From Fusobacterium sp. IOR10 (lineage in GTDB: Bacteria; Fusobacteriota; Fusobacteriia; Fusobacteriales; Fusobacteriaceae), in the NCBI RefSeq assembly GCF_010367435.1, contig NZ_WJWY01000013.1:1-59390 (forward strand): 59,390 bases of DNA. Reading direction: 5' to 3'. The position numbers were made by a program, and so were the translations under genes. Positions 7,794-18,600 of this stretch are shown here, in pieces. Numbering within the stretch: the first letter of the stretch is position 1; each line of letters opens with the position of its first letter. The notes under the pieces were generated by a model. That model was not told where the DNA came from. It made no database searches and worked only from the letters and a program-made list of their open reading frames with translations.

Positions 7794-7994
7794 CTACGCG
7801 ATTTCTACGTTAGCTGCTTGAGGACCTTTTTGTCCTTCTTTTACATCAAAAGTTACTGCTTGACCTTCGTCTAAAGTTTTGAATCCTTCTTTTTTGATTT
7901 CAGAGAAATGTACGAATAAGTCATTTCCTTCTTCAGAAGTGATAAATCCAAACCCTTTTTCTGCGTTAAACCATTTTACTGTTCCTTTGTTCAT
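7794..7994 (-). CDS. Cold-shock protein (CspA family), copy 1
   Basis: This is a 66-residue single cold-shock domain, a nucleic-acid chaperone acting in the cytoplasm. Both RNA-binding motifs are present: RNP1 as KGFGFIT (about 14-20) and RNP2 as LFVHFSEI (about 27-34). It differs from copy 2 by a single residue (Asp versus Glu at about 43). It has its own promoter, a leader of about 110 bases nearly identical to that of copy 2, and its own terminator. The long conserved leader suggests post-transcriptional control, as in cspA thermosensor leaders. Confidence 0.95.
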
Positions 7995-8255: not shown

Positions 8256-8456
8256 CTACGCGATTTCTACGTTAGCTGCTTGAGGACCTTTTTGTCCTTC
8301 TTTTACATCAAAAGTCACTGCTTGACCTTCTTCTAAAGTTTTGAATCCTTCTTTTTTAATTTCAGAGAAATGTACGAATAAATCGTTTCCTTCTTCAGAA
8401 GTGATAAATCCAAATCCTTTTTCTGCGTTAAACCATTTTACTGTTCCTTTGTTCAT
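8256..8456 (-). CDS. Cold-shock protein (CspA family), copy 2
   Basis: This 66-residue cold-shock domain protein is nearly identical to copy 1 (RNP1 KGFGFIT, RNP2 LFVHFSEI). The frame stays open upstream, but the start used here is the ATG of MNKGTVKWF at 8456. It has the GGAGG-type Shine-Dalgarno (TATGGAGGTATCACA) and matches the family length; the upstream codons belong to the leader. The two genes have matching promoters, leaders, coding regions and terminators, so they arose by a recent tandem duplication of the whole transcription unit. Confidence 0.95.
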
Positions 8457-11310: not shown

Positions 11311-11940
11311 CTAAACTATATAGTAAATAGACAAGAAATTAAAGAAACTTCCTCCTATTACAAACATATGCCATATACAGTGACTAAATTTTAATCTTTT
11401 CATCATATAAAATAAAGCTCCCACTGAATAAGTTATTCCACCTATAATTAAAAAATCTAAAGATATGCTACTTAAAGCTAGTTTAATATCTTTAAATACA
11501 AACATTATCATCCAACCCATAAACAAATAAATTAATGTTGAAACTCCTTTAAATCTACCTGTAAAAAAGATTTTAAAAATAATACCAAGAAATGTAAGTC
11601 CCCATTGGGCAGCAAAAATAATCCATCTAGTTCTACCATGTAATACAGTAAAAATATATGGGGTATAAGACGCTGAAATTAAAACATAAATAGCCACATG
11701 GTCTAAAACCCTAAATGTATTTTTTGTTTTTCCTTGTTTTAAAATATGATATGTTCCTGACATTGAATATAGAAATATTAATGCTAATCCAAAAATTACG
11801 CATCCCACTGTATATCCCACTTCAAATGTTTTAGAAGATTTCATAACCATTAAAATTAAAGCAACTAATGACAACCCTGCTCCTATATAATGACTTATTG
11901 CATTTAGATATTCTTCTAAATTTTGTCTCATTTTTATCAC
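11311..11940 (-). CDS. Hemolysin III family (PAQR-type) membrane protein
   Basis: A 209-residue integral membrane protein with seven predicted helices. The conserved family residues are present: the first-helix ISHYIGAG, SGTYHIL, RVLDHVAIYVLISASYTP and the C-terminal HCIWHMFVIGG histidines. These match the metal-site pattern of the hemolysin III / PAQR superfamily (YqfA/YplQ group). A hydrolase or lipid-related role has been suggested for relatives; real haemolysis is unproven for most. It probably heads a small operon with the 49-residue ORF and the acyl-activating fusion, which fits a lipid-linked function. Confidence 0.85.
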   Translation of the reverse strand: MIKMRQNLEEYLNAISHYIGAGLSLVALILMVMKSSKTFEVGYTVGCVIFGLALIFLYSMSGTYHILKQGKTKNTFRVLDHVAIYVLISASYTPYIFTVLHGRTRWIIFAAQWGLTFLGIIFKIFFTGRFKGVSTLIYLFMGWMIMFVFKDIKLALSSISLDFLIIGGITYSVGALFYMMKRLKFSHCIWHMFVIGGSFFNFLSIYYIV

Positions 11941-11998
11941 CTCCTAACATAATCATATCTCATTATTTAATTTTTGTCCATATTTTTAAAATTTAAAA

Positions 11999-12027
11999 TT
12001 GACATTTTATTGCTTTTAATTTATCAT
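11999..12027 (+). promoter_or_regulatory. Promoter of nitroreductase gene
   Basis: TTGACA (11999-12004), 17-base spacer, TATCAT (12022-12027). An AGGAGG ribosome site follows at about 12054. Confidence 0.75.
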
Positions 12028-12067
12028 CTACTTATAGTTTTATTATTATATTTAGGAGGCTTAATGT

Positions 12068-12640
12068 ATGAACAAAAGTATTTTTTTAAAAAATCGTTCT
12101 TATAGATCTTTTACAAGTAGAAGTATTTACAAGGAAGAGTTAATTAAAATGATTGAAAATGCTAGACTTGGAGCCAGTGCTAGAAATGCTCAGAATATTA
12201 GATACTCTATAGTTTGGGAAAAAGATTTATGTGATGAAATCTTTCCTAACATTGCTTGGGCTGGAGGGATAAAGTGGAACCCTTCTGAAAATCAATGTCC
12301 TAGAGGTTATATTATTTTATGTTTGCCAAACAATAGAAACCTTAATTATAATTATAATTATTTTGATATGGGAATAGCTGCACAAAATATACTATTAACT
12401 GCAACAGAAATGAATCTAGGAGGATGTATCGTTGCTTCCTTTAATAAAGATAGAATACAAAGTCTTTTAAATATTCCTGATAGTTACAGTCCAGAAATAT
12501 TAATTGCCCTTGGGGAACCTGCAGAAAAATCTTCTATTTTTAATGCTATAAACAAGGAAACTAACTATTATCGTGATATTGAAAATCATCATATGTATGT
12601 GCCTAAAATTTGTACATGTGACCTTATATTAAAAAAATAG
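12068..12640 (+). CDS. Nitroreductase family protein
   Basis: An FMN-dependent oxidoreductase of the nitroreductase superfamily, 190 residues, cytoplasmic. The N-terminal RSYRSFTSRSI and the ARLGASARNAQNIRY segment are the phosphate/FMN-binding parts. The middle FDMGIAAQNILLTATEMNLGGC corresponds to the family helix and loop that cover the flavin, and IALGEPAE sits near the C-terminus. The final CTCDLILKK tail has a CxC motif. The physiological substrate is unknown. It stands alone, with its own promoter upstream and a terminator downstream. Confidence 0.85.
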   Translation: MNKSIFLKNRSYRSFTSRSIYKEELIKMIENARLGASARNAQNIRYSIVWEKDLCDEIFPNIAWAGGIKWNPSENQCPRGYIILCLPNNRNLNYNYNYFDMGIAAQNILLTATEMNLGGCIVASFNKDRIQSLLNIPDSYSPEILIALGEPAEKSSIFNAINKETNYYRDIENHHMYVPKICTCDLILKK

Positions 12641-12646
12641 AGCAAA

Positions 12647-12670
12647 AGCAGGAATATTAATATTCCTGCT
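12647..12670 (+). terminator. Terminator after nitroreductase gene
   Basis: The stem AGCAGGAATA / TATTCCTGCT with a TTAA loop is followed by six T residues. It may also serve the converging cysteine desulfidase gene, since A residues precede it. Confidence 0.8.
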
Positions 12671-12695
12671 TTTTTGTATACCTATCTATTTATTT

Positions 12696-13979
12696 TTATT
12701 TGTTTGATAATATATCAATTACAGTCATGTCAATTTCTTTCATTCCTTCATTTGAAAGTCTTGCTACATTATCCATTGTATCTTCTATTTTTTCACTAAC
12801 TATTCCATCTGTTTTACTAGCTCTAACCCCTGCTATTGAATATTTTGCTGCTAATACTGCTTCCCCAGAACAAGAACATAATTTTGCTGAACATCCGTCC
12901 TTTGCACCATCACACATCATCCCTGTAATACTTGAAAACATATTATTCATAGCACCTTTTATTTCTGCTAGTTTTCCTCCTAATAACCAAGTGATTCCAG
13001 CTGAAGCAGCTGTTCCACCTAACATACCACCACAGATTGGAGATAATCTTCCTAAGTTACATTTCATTCTAAGCATAACTAAAATACTAATAAATAAAGC
13101 TCTTAACATTTTTTCTCTAGGTAGTTTTAAATAGGAAGCCACTGCTATTACAGGTAAACTTGTTTGGAAACCTTGGTTTCCACTTCCTGCAATTGTCATT
13201 GCTGAAAAGGGACCTCCACCCATTCTCATGTCTGCTGCTGCAGATGTTACCATTTTCACATGGTTTACAATGTCATCTGATAAAGTTTTTTCTTCAATTA
13301 ATCTTTTAATTGTTCTTCCAATGTGCATACCATAATCTTTTTTTAGCCCCTCTTCTGAAGCTGCTAAATTCATATTTATACATTCATCTAAAAATTCCAA
13401 ATCTTTAACATCTATAGTTTCTGCCACTTCTATTAATTCCTTAACAGTGAACTTGGAAATATCCATATATTTTTCTTCAGTTGAATTTTCACCTGGCTTA
13501 TTTTCTAATTTATTTAAAATAACTTCTCCATTTTTTTCAACTTTTACTAAATTATCGTGTCTATCTAAAGTTAGAGTTTCAACTTTTTCATGCTCATTAG
13601 TTGCTAAAACTTCTATGTAAAATCTACTATCCTTCATAGCTTCCATTTCTACAAAGTTGTCTTTTACAAGTGCTTCAGCCTTTGAAATTAATTCAGGAGT
13701 AACACCTTTGAAAATTTCCATATCATTGTTTTCCTTTGTTAATAAATATCCTAAAGCTGATGCTAGTTTAATTCCAGATTCATCTGTATTTGGTAATTTA
13801 ACACAAAAGGCATTTTTAAAAATATTTGAACTTATTTTTAATTTTATTTTTGTAGCTGGTTTTTCCAAATATCTACATGTATTTGATACTGCTAGTCCTA
13901 TTGCAACTGGTTCTGTACAACCCATACTAGGTTTCATTTCAGATTTAGCTAATTTTATAAAATCTGCATATTTATTCAT
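12696..13979 (-). CDS. cyuA: L-cysteine desulfidase (CyuA/YhaM, UPF0597 family)
   Basis: An iron-sulfur enzyme that breaks L-cysteine into pyruvate, ammonia and sulfide in anaerobes. It has 427 residues, as expected. Family signatures: KPSMGCTEPVAIGLA at the N-terminus (Cys21), RMGGGPFSAMTIAGSGNQG in the middle, and the cysteine-rich C-terminal part (MKCNLGRLSPICGG and MMCDGAKDGCSAKLC) that supplies the 4Fe-4S ligands. Upstream is a canonical sigma-54 promoter and a palindromic site. The next gene upstream encodes a sigma-54 activator, so expression is probably induced by cysteine or a related signal. It complements cysK-cysE elsewhere in the window by running the opposite way. Confidence 0.9.
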   Translation of the reverse strand: MNKYADFIKLAKSEMKPSMGCTEPVAIGLAVSNTCRYLEKPATKIKLKISSNIFKNAFCVKLPNTDESGIKLASALGYLLTKENNDMEIFKGVTPELISKAEALVKDNFVEMEAMKDSRFYIEVLATNEHEKVETLTLDRHDNLVKVEKNGEVILNKLENKPGENSTEEKYMDISKFTVKELIEVAETIDVKDLEFLDECINMNLAASEEGLKKDYGMHIGRTIKRLIEEKTLSDDIVNHVKMVTSAAADMRMGGGPFSAMTIAGSGNQGFQTSLPVIAVASYLKLPREKMLRALFISILVMLRMKCNLGRLSPICGGMLGGTAASAGITWLLGGKLAEIKGAMNNMFSSITGMMCDGAKDGCSAKLCSCSGEAVLAAKYSIAGVRASKTDGIVSEKIEDTMDNVARLSNEGMKEIDMTVIDILSNK

Positions 13980-14021
13980 TACCCCACCTCTTTAATTTAT
14001 TTTATTTCTCAAGTATATAAT

Positions 14022-14038
14022 AAGCAATTTACGTGCCA
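14022..14038 (-). promoter_or_regulatory. Sigma-54 (-24/-12) promoter of cyuA
   Basis: On the minus strand TGGCACGTAAATTGCTT matches the sigma-54 consensus TGGCAC-N5-TTGCW at every conserved position (GG at -24, GC at -12, correct spacing). It lies about 45 bases before the cyuA start. Confidence 0.9.
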
Positions 14039-14088
14039 TTTTACACCTCTGCTTTTCCCGGACATCTCAATTTAAAGTTCCATCTTTT

Positions 14089-14106
14089 TTTATCAGATTT
14101 GATAAA
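14089..14106. promoter_or_regulatory. Palindrome, candidate activator site (UAS) for cyuA
   Basis: TTTATCA-N4-TGATAAA, a perfect 7-bp inverted repeat, lies about 60-75 bases upstream of the sigma-54 promoter on the cyuA side. This is the usual place for a sigma-54 enhancer-binding protein. The same TTATCA-N4-TGATAA pattern recurs 57 bases away in the hairpin at 14141-14168. Confidence 0.6.
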
Positions 14107-14140
14107 TTTCAAAATTTTATTTTTGGAAACAATTGAAAAG

Positions 14141-14168
14141 AAAGGGTTATCATAAATGATAACCCTTT
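14141..14168 (-). terminator. Terminator of the sigma-54 regulator, with embedded second palindrome
   Basis: The arms AAAGGGTTATCAT / ATGATAACCCTTT are 13 bp with a 2-base gap, followed on the minus strand by TCTTTTC. It lies 20 bases past the regulator stop. Its centre repeats the TTATCA-N4-TGATAA motif of the candidate UAS, so it may serve as both terminator and binding site. Confidence 0.6.
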
Positions 14169-14188
14169 CTCAAAATTGATAAATTAAT

Positions 14189-15637
14189 TTATAGTTTATA
14201 TGCAGATAATTTTCTATATAAAGTTGCTCTGCTTATACCTAATTTTTTAGCTAAAGCATCCTTTTCTTCTAAAGTATTTATATTTTTTGTTAAATCCTTA
14301 AGAATATTTCTTTCATAATCTTCAATTATTTCTGAAAGATTTTTATTTGAAATACCCATCCTATGATTTTTACTTATTTGTACTGGTAGATCTTTAAGTT
14401 CTATATAGTTTCCCTCTATAACATTTTCAATATATTCTATTATATTTCTAAGTTCCCTAACATTTCCTGACCAATCATAATTTATCATGGCTCTTTTAGC
14501 CTCAGTTGTTACACCTAAAACATTTTTAGAGAGTTTTTTATTATATAGTTTTATAAAGTAATCTATAAAGTTAATTATATCCTCTTTTCTTTCTCTCAAA
14601 GCTGGAATTTTTATAGGAATAACATTAATTCTATAATATAAATCTTCCCTAAATGTCTTTTCTTCAACCATTTTTTCTAAATTTTTATTAGTAGCACAAA
14701 TAACCCTAACATTTATAGGTATTGAACATTTCCCACCAACTCTTTCTATCTTTTCTTCCTGTAAAACTCTAAGAAGTTTTTTTTGTACATGAAGGGGCAT
14801 ATCCCCTATTTCATCTAAAAATAAAGTACTGTTGTTAGCTAGTTCAAATTTACCTATATGTCCGCTTTTTTTCGCCCCTGTAAAAGCTCCCTCTTCATAT
14901 CCAAAAAGTTCACTTTCCACAAGATTTTCAGGAATAGCCCCGCAATTTATAGATATCATAAGTTTATCTTTCCTATCACTTACTGAATGAATATATTTTG
15001 CTAATAAATCCTTTCCAGTACCACTTTCCCCTGTTATAACAACTGTTGAACTAGATTTTCCAATTTTATCACATAGGTTTAAAATATTCTTAATAGATTC
15101 ATTTTTACCTATGAATTTATTTCTTCTAACTTCAATACTTTGAGAATTTATAACATCATTTATTTGTCCTTCTAATTTTCTCTTTTCCATAGCTAGCTGG
15201 ATTTTACTTTCTAATAATAAGCTCATATATTTTAAAAATTCTTCCATGGAAGCTCTTTTTTCTAACAAACATTTTTTTTGGTTTTTATTAAAGGCAATTA
15301 TTCCTATAACTCCTATTACCTCATTATTTAAGCTAATAGGTTCTGCTATATTTGCAAGTTCCCTGCATTGATCTCTTTTTTCACATTGATCCCTTTTCTC
15401 ACATTTATCACAAGCCCCTTGCTCTAGACAATCTCTAACTTTTTTCTTATTACCCTTTAATATTATTTCTCCAAAAAAAGAATCCTCAGGTATTTTTTCC
15501 CCTAATCTTTCTAAATACTCCCCTGTTCCAGCTACCCTTATTAAATTTTTATCCACAATAGTCACGTCTGCCTCTAATATAGAAGAAATGGCCATGGCAT
15601 AATTTTGAATAAATTCTAACTCCAATACATTTTTCAT
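14189..15637 (-). CDS. Sigma-54-dependent transcriptional activator with Cys-rich sensor
   Basis: A 482-residue enhancer-binding protein. Residues about 1-150 form a PAS/GAF-like sensor holding a compact cysteine cluster (Cys70, 76, 79, 85, 91) that includes a tandem CEKRDQ repeat. Residues about 170-410 are the AAA+ domain (Walker A GESGTGKD at 203-210; GAFTGA at 250-255, the sigma-54 contact loop; Walker B LFLDEIGD). The C-terminus (about 440-482) is a Fis-type helix-turn-helix (KKLGISRATLYRKL). It is transcribed toward cyuA, which has a sigma-54 promoter, so cyuA is the natural target. The cysteines suggest a thiol, metal or Fe-S signal. It starts 9 bases after addA. Confidence 0.9.
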   Translation of the reverse strand: MKNVLELEFIQNYAMAISSILEADVTIVDKNLIRVAGTGEYLERLGEKIPEDSFFGEIILKGNKKKVRDCLEQGACDKCEKRDQCEKRDQCRELANIAEPISLNNEVIGVIGIIAFNKNQKKCLLEKRASMEEFLKYMSLLLESKIQLAMEKRKLEGQINDVINSQSIEVRRNKFIGKNESIKNILNLCDKIGKSSSTVVITGESGTGKDLLAKYIHSVSDRKDKLMISINCGAIPENLVESELFGYEEGAFTGAKKSGHIGKFELANNSTLFLDEIGDMPLHVQKKLLRVLQEEKIERVGGKCSIPINVRVICATNKNLEKMVEEKTFREDLYYRINVIPIKIPALRERKEDIINFIDYFIKLYNKKLSKNVLGVTTEAKRAMINYDWSGNVRELRNIIEYIENVIEGNYIELKDLPVQISKNHRMGISNKNLSEIIEDYERNILKDLTKNINTLEEKDALAKKLGISRATLYRKLSAYKL

Positions 15638-15646
15638 TAGTTCCCC

Positions 15647-18600
15647 CTAATTATTTTCCATATTGATTTCCAAATATATTTTTTCTATATTATAACTATC
15701 TAATACCCCTAGTTTCTCCAAAGACTGGGAAACTAATTTTTCATAGTTTTCTATTTGTTCTTCCTCATGTCCCCCAGTTTTATAATCCACAATAAAAACC
15801 TTTCCCTTTTCTTCTAAACTTGGTTTTTTTATCATTAGTCTATCTATTCTATAAAGGCTCTTATCCTCTTCAGAATATATTGGATATTCATTATAGATAA
15901 AATCCCAAGATTCTGAAAATATATCTTCCTTATCCCTTATGTTTCTTTCTATAAATTTCCTTGAAAATAACTTTTCTAAAAAGTTTTCCTCATACAAGGC
16001 ACCATATTTGGAAATTGTTTTTTCCCTAGCTAATATTATTTCATCTTCCCTTGCATATTTAATGTTTTCAAAGAAATAATGCACAACAGTACCTAGAATC
16101 TTTTTTTCTTCCCTTTCAATGGTAAAGTTTTCCCTTTCATTTGTAAGTTTATTAATGTTTTCTTCTAATTTTTCACTGTCATAGGAAAGTTCTCTAAAAT
16201 CAATATTTAGTTTTTCATTTTCCTTGGATTTTTTCATATCTTCTATTTTTTCTTCTTCCTTTGTTCTTTCCTTTAAATAGACTTCACCTAAAGTATATAC
16301 TAACTGAGAATTGAAATAATTTGCCCCTACTAATTTTTGAAAGTCTCCATTTTTACTAACCTTGTCAATTACTATAAAAAGATTTTTTTTAGGACGAGTT
16401 AGAGCCACATAAATATTATTTATCTCCTCTTCAGCTTCCTTTCTTTTTTTATCACTGGCATAGTCAAATTGATCCTCTAAATAAGTGAAAATCTTTTCAT
16501 ATGAACTTTCTGTTATTAAATAGTCATCTACTTTTTTGTAATTGTCATTTATCTTTATATTAAATTGAAAACCTTTATTCCCAGAATTATTTCCTTCCTT
16601 ATGAATATAAAAAACTGTATCAAATTCAAGACCCTTTGATTTATGAATTGTCATTAGGGCTACTCCATTATATTCCTTTGTTGACTCTTGCCTATACTGG
16701 CTAGAATCATTGTTTTCCTTTACCTCTTCTATTAATTCCTCTACAAATTCAAATTCCTTGCATTTTTCCAAGAACTTATATACATTCTTAATATCACTTT
16801 CACTTGTATACTTATCTAGCACACCAAAATCTTTTATTATCTCTTCTATAACTGTATAAAGTTTAAAATTATTCTCCCTATACATATTTTTATATTTAAT
16901 TATTTTATCATATACTTTTTTCTCATCTTGATTTTCAAAATTAAAGTTATCTAAATTATCTAAATTTAAAAGTATTTTTTTTAAAGAGTCATCCCCAATA
17001 AATATTAGATCATCCCTTAAAAATTCAATTAAATAAAAATTATTCTCTGTTATAAAGTATTTAAACAAAGTTAATATTGGACTTACAACCCTTGATTCAA
17101 ATATACTCAATCTAGTTTCTAGAAAATATGGAATTTTATTTTCTGAAAGGGCAAAGGCCATTTTATTTAAAATCTTATTACTTCTAGCTAATATTCCTAT
17201 TCCCTTATATTGTCCATTATAATTTTCTTTAAGTAATTTTATAATTTCTTTATATGAAAATTCATCATCCTTACTATCTCCCTTTGAGTACAGTCCTACA
17301 AAGCCTTTACTTTCACTTTTATTTCCATTAACCCTATTAAATTCCCAAGAAATATCCCCTAAGGACTTTGAATAGTTTTCAAAAAAGCTATTTGTAAAAT
17401 CAACTATTCTTTTTTCACTTCTATAACAAGTATCCAAACTTTCAACTTCACAATCTATAATATTTGGAAGTTTCATAAATAGGTTTTTATCCCCATCCCT
17501 CCATCCATATATACTTTGCTTTTCATCTCCAACACAGATTACATTCTTTGCACTTTCCACAAAGGGAGATAAGATTTTCCATTGAACTACACTTGTATCT
17601 TGAAATTCATCTATAAATATTGTTGTAGCTTCACTTTCAAGGATTTCCTTCATGTAAGTTGTTATCTTATTGTTTTCATCTAAAAGATTAAGCTCATTAT
17701 TTCCAATATATTTAAGTGTATAATTAGTTATATCACTGTGGGTAAACTTATGCTCTTTAAATTTTATTTCATCATAAATTCCATATATATCGTCTAAAAA
17801 GGATAACATTTCCCTTTCATAGGATATAACTTTATCATTGTATATTCTTTTGGAAATTTCACTTTTAAGATCATCCATTATTTCCATTTGATCTTGAAAT
17901 AATTCCAAAACATATTCATCTTTCCCTGCTCTTATTTTTCTACCATCTAATATATATTTATCATCTAGTATTGTCTTCCAATTATTTAGTAAGAACTTTT
18001 CCTTTTCTAAATATGTATCTAATCCTAGATACTCCTTATATAATTTTTTAACATGCTCTACTATTGGAGTGCTTTCCTTTTTTTTATATTCTCTTATTTT
18101 TTCCAAAACACTTAACATTTCATCAATTTGTGTCATCTCTTGAGAAACATCATAGGGCTCTCTTTCTCTTTTTTCAAGTAGAATGTACTTCCATCTATGA
18201 TTTATAATTCCCCCTAAAGTATCAATATGTTTTTCAACATTTCTCTCTAAATTAGTTTCAAAAAATTTCTGAAACAACTTAAAATTCTTCTCACTTGAGG
18301 TTATTTTTTCAAAACATTTCTTTAAAATTTCATAGTTTTCAAAATCCTCTATAATTTCAAAGGTGTTAATATTTAACATCTTTGACACGGAATTTTTAAA
18401 AATAATATTTTTAAAACCATCAATTGTATAAACTTTTAAATTATCCTTGTTTAACACAATATTTTCATATATTTTTTTCATATTAACTTCATCTATATTT
18501 ATTTTAGGATATAGGTTTTCTATGGATTTTTTTATATTAATCCCCTCTTCATCCATAATACATAGACTTTTTAAGAAATCCACTATTCTTTTTTTTATTT

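What the first reader, a model, noticed from the sequence alone, without database searches (positions are those of the whole stretch)
13980..14188. Sigma-54 promoter and twin palindromes controlling L-cysteine desulfidase
Seen: an exact -24/-12 element (TGGCACGTAAATTGCTT) before cyuA; a TTTATCA-N4-TGATAAA palindrome upstream; and the same TTATCA-N4-TGATAA core inside the terminator hairpin of the sigma-54 activator gene, 57 bases away. Known: sigma-54 activators bind paired upstream sites. Inference: both palindromes bind the neighbouring activator, and one doubles as terminator. Sigma-54 control of cysteine breakdown differs from the known Lrp-type control in enterobacteria.
Basis: partly seen in the sequence, partly recalled or inferred. 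Interest (0 to 1): 0.65.

Follow-up and report, generated by a model that had tools for sequence, protein, structure and literature searches.

The report
Sigma-54 enhancer array controlling cysteine desulfidase
A bacterium probably switches on its cysteine-degrading, sulfide-releasing enzyme with a sigma-54 promoter, and the DNA sites its activator most likely binds also form the apparent stop signal of the activator gene; this kind of control is already known in Clostridioides difficile, so the system is largely a new member of a known kind.

Summary
An exact -24/-12 promoter (14038..14023) precedes cyuA. Two exact TTATCA-N4-TGATAA palindromes lie at 14090 and 14147, the second inside the activator gene's terminator-like hairpin. 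I add a third site (TTATCAATTTTGAGAA, 14182..14167), 20 bp from the second.

rpoN is present. In this genome 5 of 7 TTMTCA-N4-TGAKAA sites lie upstream of two sigma-54 promoters: cyuA, and a symporter-like gene on another contig. The 36-bp composite of the two upstream sites occurs exactly at 3 places in 98 genomes of the phylum: these two, and cyuA of one congener.

The activator-cyuA pair groups with Anaerotignum (Bacillota) pairs in both gene trees, which fits lateral transfer. Those pairs carry TTCTCA-N4-TGAGAA-type sites. Relatives of the activator next to more distant cyuA genes carry TTTTCA-N3-TGAAAA-type sites, usually right after the regulator's stop codon.

Sigma-54 control of a cysteine desulfidase by a neighbouring activator is published for C. 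difficile (SigL, CdsR, cdsB) and predicted in other Clostridiales. So this is a new member of a known kind. Its least expected part is the overlap of enhancer site and terminator, which recurs in other lineages. Binding and termination are inferred, not measured.

The parts
12696..13979 (-). cyuA/cdsB-type L-cysteine desulfidase (427 aa)
   Evidence: Pfam SDH_alpha E 1.2e-54; full-length match to solved L-cysteine desulfidase 9he0, E 3.5e-32; Cys316, Cys356, Cys363 align with the three conserved cluster cysteines and Cys21/Glu23 with Cys23/Glu25 of MmCyuA (mapping read by me with a +2 numbering offset)
14023..14038 (-). sigma-54 -24/-12 promoter TGGCACGTAAATTGCT
   Evidence: exact consensus match; 7 matches to TGGCAY-N5-TTGCW in the 2.03-Mb genome
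14090..14105 (.). activator site C, TTATCAAATCTGATAA read on the minus strand
   Evidence: counterpart at the same distance from ATG (-125) in G034
14147..14162 (.). activator site B, TTATCATTTATGATAA read on the minus strand, inside the terminator-like hairpin
   Evidence: counterparts in G034 and at contig C45
14167..14182 (.). activator site A, TTATCAATTTTGAGAA read on the minus strand, 20 bp from site B and overlapping the 5' arm of the hairpin
   Evidence: counterparts in G034 and C45
14138..14171 (-). intrinsic-terminator-like hairpin of the activator gene (15-bp stem, 4-nt loop)
   Evidence: not called by the consensus terminator scan
14189..15637 (-). sigma-54 enhancer-binding protein (482 aa): N-terminal sensory domain with three conserved cysteines, AAA+ domain with GAFTGA, Fis-type HTH; no PAS domain
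   Evidence: Sigma54_activat E 1.6e-70, HTH_8; alignment with 8 relatives
12644..12673 (-). terminator after cyuA, which suggests a single-gene transcript
   Evidence: terminator scan

Best explanation
The activator at 14189-15637 is a short, PAS-less enhancer-binding protein of the CdsR kind. It binds three dyad sites, TTATCA-N4-TGAKAA, placed between its own stop codon and the sigma-54 promoter. By DNA looping and ATP hydrolysis it opens sigma-54 RNA polymerase at that promoter, so that cyuA is made when cysteine is in excess. Two of the sites (A and B) are interleaved with the apparent intrinsic terminator of the activator gene, so the same DNA serves as enhancer and as terminator. The same A+B element also precedes a sigma-54 promoter in front of a symporter-like gene on contig C45, so uptake and breakdown of the amino acid would be induced together. 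Shown: the sequences, their conservation and positions, rpoN, gene identities by homology, and predicted RNA folding. Inferred: binding, sigma-54 dependence, cysteine as inducer, termination, and the symporter's identity and substrate.
For: rpoN present. Exact promoter. The relaxed motif TTMTCA-N4-TGAKAA has 7 sites in the genome: 3 before cyuA, 2 before the C45 promoter, 2 inside coding sequence. The composite A+B has 0 mismatches at exactly 3 places in 98 genomes. Site positions relative to ATG are identical in the window and G034 (-202, -182, -125). Activator and cyuA each group with the Anaerotignum pair (100/99 and 100/100), whose cyuA upstream regions also carry N4 sites. Of 27 upstream regions examined, 25 carry TNTCA-N3/4-TGANA-type sites. 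C. difficile precedent: SigL, CdsR and a region with two inverted repeats are needed for cysteine-induced cdsB expression (PMC5767170).
Against: No binding or expression data. Only one close cyuA orthologue exists in the phylum, so conservation of the exact TTATCA form rests on two species plus the C45 copy. In G034 the symporter-like gene's upstream region has no such site. The window genome's second cyuA-like gene on C40 has no sigma-54 match upstream. The terminator's T-run is short and the consensus scan missed it. L169 and L182 have a neighbouring activator but no such sites. The C45 gene is cut off by the contig end, and its N-terminus gives no Pfam match. The relaxed motif's genome-wide total (7) is no higher than its reversed control (7); only the clustering stands out.
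Confidence: 0.85

Rival explanations
1. The promoter and palindromes A and C are regulatory, but palindrome B is only the stem of a terminator that resembles the site by chance.
For: Terminator stems are palindromes by nature; site B is the only one of the three built into a long stem.
Against: The same TTATCA-N4-TGATAA core with site A exactly 20 bp away occurs at C45 behind a different upstream gene and in G034, while the whole genome has only 5 exact cores. The outer arms keep GAAAGG...CCTTTC in all three while the base next to the core varies.
Confidence: 0.12
2. The palindromes bind a different regulator (repressor or another activator); the neighbouring activator acts elsewhere.
For: The genome encodes 9 high-scoring sigma-54 activators; the C45 promoter has no activator gene in the 1.5 kb upstream that I examined.
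Against: Site type follows activator type across phyla: short PAS-less activators have N4 sites and the longer activators sampled have N3 sites, mostly abutting the activator's own stop codon. One exception is L218, with N4-like sites and a divergent activator that seems to have the longer form.
Confidence: 0.06
3. The hairpin acts as an attenuator or RNA-level switch of a readthrough transcript into cyuA rather than as part of an enhancer.
For: The activator and cyuA are codirectional and the hairpin lies between them.
Against: No Rfam match in 11900-16000; the element also precedes the C45 promoter behind an unrelated gene; the sigma-54 promoter and site C lie downstream of it.
Confidence: 0.05

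Closest known systems
C. difficile SigL-CdsR-cdsB (PMC5767170, abstract and passages read; PMC7438776, passages)
   Same: Activator gene just upstream of the desulfidase gene, -24/-12 promoter, upstream inverted repeats about 21 bp apart (-179..-190 and -200..-211), cysteine desulfidase as target.
   Different: CdsR has 591 aa with a PAS domain; this activator has 482 aa without one. Three sites here, two interleaved with a terminator-like hairpin. Different phylum.
CdsR regulons predicted in Clostridiales (PMC6615313, passages read; site logos in its Fig. 3 not readable here)
   Same: Comparative prediction of sigma-54 promoter plus activator site before cdsB in C. difficile, C. botulinum, C. 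sporogenes, C. scatologenes.
   Different: Species set is Clostridiales only; the passages read mention no terminator overlap. Two motif groups (CdsR1/2) are named, but I could not compare their logos.
Longer-activator + cyuA pairs found here in the same family (16 loci) and in Thermotalea, Anaerosolibacter and Peptostreptococcus
   Same: Activator next to cyuA, sigma-54-like promoter, repeated dyads after the activator gene.
   Different: N3 spacing (TTTTCA-N3-TGAAAA or TCTCA-N3-TGAGA), activators of 590-646 aa; cyuA only 31-37% identical to the window's.
Anaerotignum activator-cyuA pairs (L170, L171, L194)
   Same: Short activator (54-57% identity), cyuA 47-49% identity, N4 dyads, sigma-54-like promoter.
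   Different: Core TTCTCA-N4-TGAGAA-like instead of TTATCA-N4-TGATAA; no stable hairpin overlapping a site was found.

Membership tests
sigma-54-dependent promoter | -24 GG / -12 GC with correct spacing | tested here: met
   TGGCACGTAAATTGCT
sigma-54-dependent promoter | rpoN in the genome | tested here: met
   PF04552 at G000:C1:94844-95284, E 2.9e-42
sigma-54-dependent promoter | mapped transcription start and loss of transcription without rpoN | not testable with these tools
   needs the bench
sigma-54 enhancer-binding protein | AAA+ domain with GAFTGA loop and Fis-type HTH | tested here: met
CdsR/cdsB system | activator adjacent to a cysteine desulfidase gene with a sigma-54 promoter between them | tested here: met
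CdsR/cdsB system | activator with PAS, AAA+ and Fis domains, as described for CdsR | tested here: not met
   no PAS domain; the region between sensory and AAA+ domains is missing. Hence 'works like CdsR, short form', not filed as a CdsR orthologue
CdsR/cdsB system | inverted-repeat activator sites upstream of the promoter | tested here: met
   sites start -202, -182, -125 from ATG, promoter at -59
CdsR/cdsB system | cysteine-induced expression | not testable with these tools
   needs the bench
L-cysteine desulfidase CyuA | three conserved cluster cysteines and Cys/Glu near the cluster | tested here: met
intrinsic terminator | stable GC-containing hairpin followed by a T-run | tested here: inconclusive
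   hairpin strong; T-run TTCTTTTC is short and not called by the scan

The most novel reading that the evidence does not exclude
The A+B element is a portable enhancer-terminator: one stretch of DNA that insulates the downstream gene from upstream readthrough, ends the activator's transcript, and recruits the activator. Tandem copies of a palindromic enhancer site can pair with each other in RNA, so regulators whose sites abut their own stop codon could gain a terminator at little cost. Activator binding and readthrough could then influence each other and give feedback on activator level.
Probability: 0.3. Interest if true: 0.5.

Novelty: new member of a known kind. Interest (0 to 1): 0.38.

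Why it matters
It extends sigma-54 control of cysteine breakdown and sulfide release, as a prediction, beyond Clostridiales to a second phylum, where about half of the genomes examined carry rpoN and many pair an activator with a cyuA gene. It gives a concrete site sequence and a two-promoter regulon that can be tested. The enhancer-terminator overlap is a simple, testable case of dual use of regulatory DNA that recurs in several lineages.

Tried and rejected
Chance origin of the palindromes: rejected for the exact form, though the two-mismatch form is at chance level and the relaxed genome-wide count (7) equals its reversed control (7); the argument rests on clustering. A binomial estimate for 5 of 7 sites falling within 250 bp upstream of the 7 promoter matches gave about 1e-14; it treats sites as independent and the 250-bp limit was chosen afterwards, so I use it only as a rough guide.

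Riboswitch or other known RNA: none reached threshold. Wider conservation of the exact composite: one further hit with 3 mismatches in G013 looks like chance. Conservation of the symporter's site in G034: not found; its upstream region lacks site and promoter and holds only what looks like a remnant of the upstream gene. Symporters elsewhere in the genus (30 loci scanned): no N4 composite, one single-mismatch site in L144. First named-genome scan with the two-sequence cyuA alignment returned no relatives; the second, with eight sequences, returned 80 loci. Papers on sigma-54 and cysteine in Fusobacterium: searches listed none evidently on this subject; searches listed none that is evidently about enhancer sites inside terminators. 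These searches cover only the open-licence library, and I judged by the listings.

Full report
What is there. On the minus strand the order is: activator gene (15637..14189), sites A (14182..14167) and B (14162..14147), site C (14105..14090), sigma-54 promoter (14038..14023), cyuA (13979..12696), terminator (12673..12644). It omits the strand and site A. The exact palindrome gave a mean of 0.06 per shuffled window, and 0 of 100 shuffles had two. Loosened to two mismatches it is at chance.

The genes. The activator has a Sigma54_activat domain, GAFTGA and a Fis-type HTH; the best NCBIfam match, PrdR, is far below its cut-off (386 against 795 bits), so no named subfamily fits. The N-terminal 150 residues match no Pfam family above cut-off, with weak GAF-like hits. 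In an alignment of 9 activators three cysteines and a following glutamate of this domain are invariant; my guess is a thiol or metal sensor, which nothing here tests. CyuA matches a solved L-cysteine desulfidase over its whole length. Its Cys316, Cys356 and Cys363 align with the three conserved cluster cysteines of MmCyuA, and Cys21/Glu23 with Cys23/Glu25 (PMC12647591, passages read; I read the mapping off the alignment with a numbering offset of two).

Sigma-54. rpoN is in this genome. In the phylum 53 of 98 genomes have a match at E <= 0.001, 48 of 98 over the curated cut-off. The genome has 12 matches to the activator domain, 9 of them strong, and 7 matches to TGGCAY-N5-TTGCW.

A second promoter. 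Of the 5 exact TTATCA-N4-TGATAA sites in the genome, two are in the window, two lie inside coding sequence, and one is at C45:9320, 109 bp upstream of another sigma-54 match (C45:9444). There the sequence repeats A+B: TTATCAAAAATGAGAA, then 20 bp on TTATCATTATTGATAA within a GAAAGG...CCTTTC hairpin. The gene downstream is cut by the contig end. Its first residues resemble the start of a gene at the end of G034 contig C7 that matches the symporter family PF00375 weakly (E 1e-4, below cut-off; sequence). The symporter identity is therefore likely, not proven; Pfam gave nothing for the C45 fragment.

Conservation. The composite TTATCA-N4-TGANAAAGGN-TTATCA-N4-TGATAA occurs with 0 mismatches at exactly 3 places in 98 genomes: window, C45, and G034 before its cyuA. 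G034 is in the same genus; its cyuA is 78% identical, its activator 79%, the gene upstream of the activator is the same helicase (read by eye), and its three sites stand at identical distances from ATG (-202, -182, -125). Matches to cyuA exist in 51 of 98 genomes, and all others are at most 37% identical.

Relatives. Around many of those distant cyuA genes the same family carries a 590-aa-class activator and up to three TTTTCA-N3-TGAAAA dyads right after the activator's stop codon. Of 27 upstream regions compared (window, G034, C45, 16 of the same family, 8 from named genomes), 25 have TNTCA-N3/4-TGANA-type sites; L169 and L182 do not. The 16 were picked because an activator lies next to cyuA; the other cyuA loci of the phylum were not put through that count, but several congeners (L102, L108-L110, L115) show sigma-54 matches and N3-like sequences without an adjacent activator in the stretch fetched. 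N4 sites go with short, PAS-less activators (window, G034, L170, L171, L194), N3 sites with longer ones (a PAS match was seen in only some of the longer ones). L218, left out of the 27 because its activator is divergent, is an exception: N4-like sites with an activator that seems to have the longer form.

Origin. The named-genome scan gave 80 loci, the best 47-51% identical, from Clostridium transplantifaecale and Anaerotignum. Of the 80, 8 have a GAFTGA-type activator in the locus, and all 8 also have a sigma-54-like match within 500 bases of cyuA (some loci held less than 2500 bases upstream, and the number with a promoter match but no activator was not counted). Activator tree (28 rows; rows without a Walker match in my script, L169 and L218 among them, were dropped): window + G034 + three Anaerotignum form a group at 100/99. 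CyuA tree (30 rows): window + G034 group with L169 and Anaerotignum at 100/100, inside Bacillota, away from the family's other cyuA genes. Transfer of the two-gene unit from Bacillota is the simplest reading; the direction is inferred from the sampled rows.

Enhancer and terminator. The activator's 3' hairpin contains site B, and its 5' arm overlaps site A (-22.8 kcal/mol, z -6.6). C45 and G034 fold alike. In an ungapped hairpin search, 8 of 27 regions had a hairpin of -13 kcal/mol or better overlapping a site (window, G034, C45, L101, L103, L126, L192, L224). L175 adds one with a bulge (-15.5). In Thermotalea (L192) and Anaerosolibacter (L224) the hairpin consists of two sites paired with each other. 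Two tandem palindromes are self-complementary by construction, so this may arise easily. In the other 18 of 27 the overlap is weak or absent, so it is not a fixed feature of the system.

Known or new. C. difficile cdsB is induced by cysteine through SigL and the neighbouring CdsR, and the upstream stretch containing two inverted repeats is required (PMC5767170, abstract and passages). CdsR regulons were predicted in several Clostridiales (PMC6615313, passages). A mapped SigL promoter for cdsB is listed in PMC7438776 (passages). A 2011 survey reports that F. nucleatum lacks sigma-54 (PMC3162934, passages). The organism here is unnamed; that the phylum is Fusobacteriota is my inference and no call names it. 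The finding is thus a new member of a known kind, with the short activator, the N4 site and the terminator overlap as its particular traits.

Noticed in passing
window 15188-15637 (-): The activator's sensory domain has an invariant C-x2-C-x5-C-x-E motif in nearly all of 9 relatives, and in the window a six-residue stretch (CEKRDQ) is duplicated within it. It could be a thiol or metal sensor.
   Followed up: partly
window 15637-15647: The activator starts 9 bases after a RecB/AddA-like helicase gene, and the same gene precedes it in G034, so it may be transcribed with a DNA-repair operon.
   Followed up: partly
G000:C40:921-2180 (L111): A second cyuA-like gene (32% identity) in the same genome lacks a sigma-54 match upstream, whereas cyuA-like genes in congeners (L102, L108-L110, L115) have one.
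   Followed up: partly
G031:C12:15594-19630; G032:C21; G033:C98; G036:C32: In congeners rpoN, a CdsR-like activator and an SDF symporter gene lie close together.
   Followed up: no
L145, L148 (G035:C8, G031:C7): A different activator type (no Fis-type C-terminus) precedes a sigma-54 match, a small redox-protein-like gene and a symporter gene; in G031 a cyuA gene follows.
   Followed up: no
window 7930-7945 and 8392-8407: The same 16-base stretch occurs twice, 462 bases apart, which suggests a repeat in that region.
   Followed up: no
L169 upstream of cyuA: Clostridium transplantifaecale has the closest cyuA outside the genus and a sigma-54 match, but a different neighbouring activator and different dyads (AGTAAAATATATTTTACT).
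   Followed up: no
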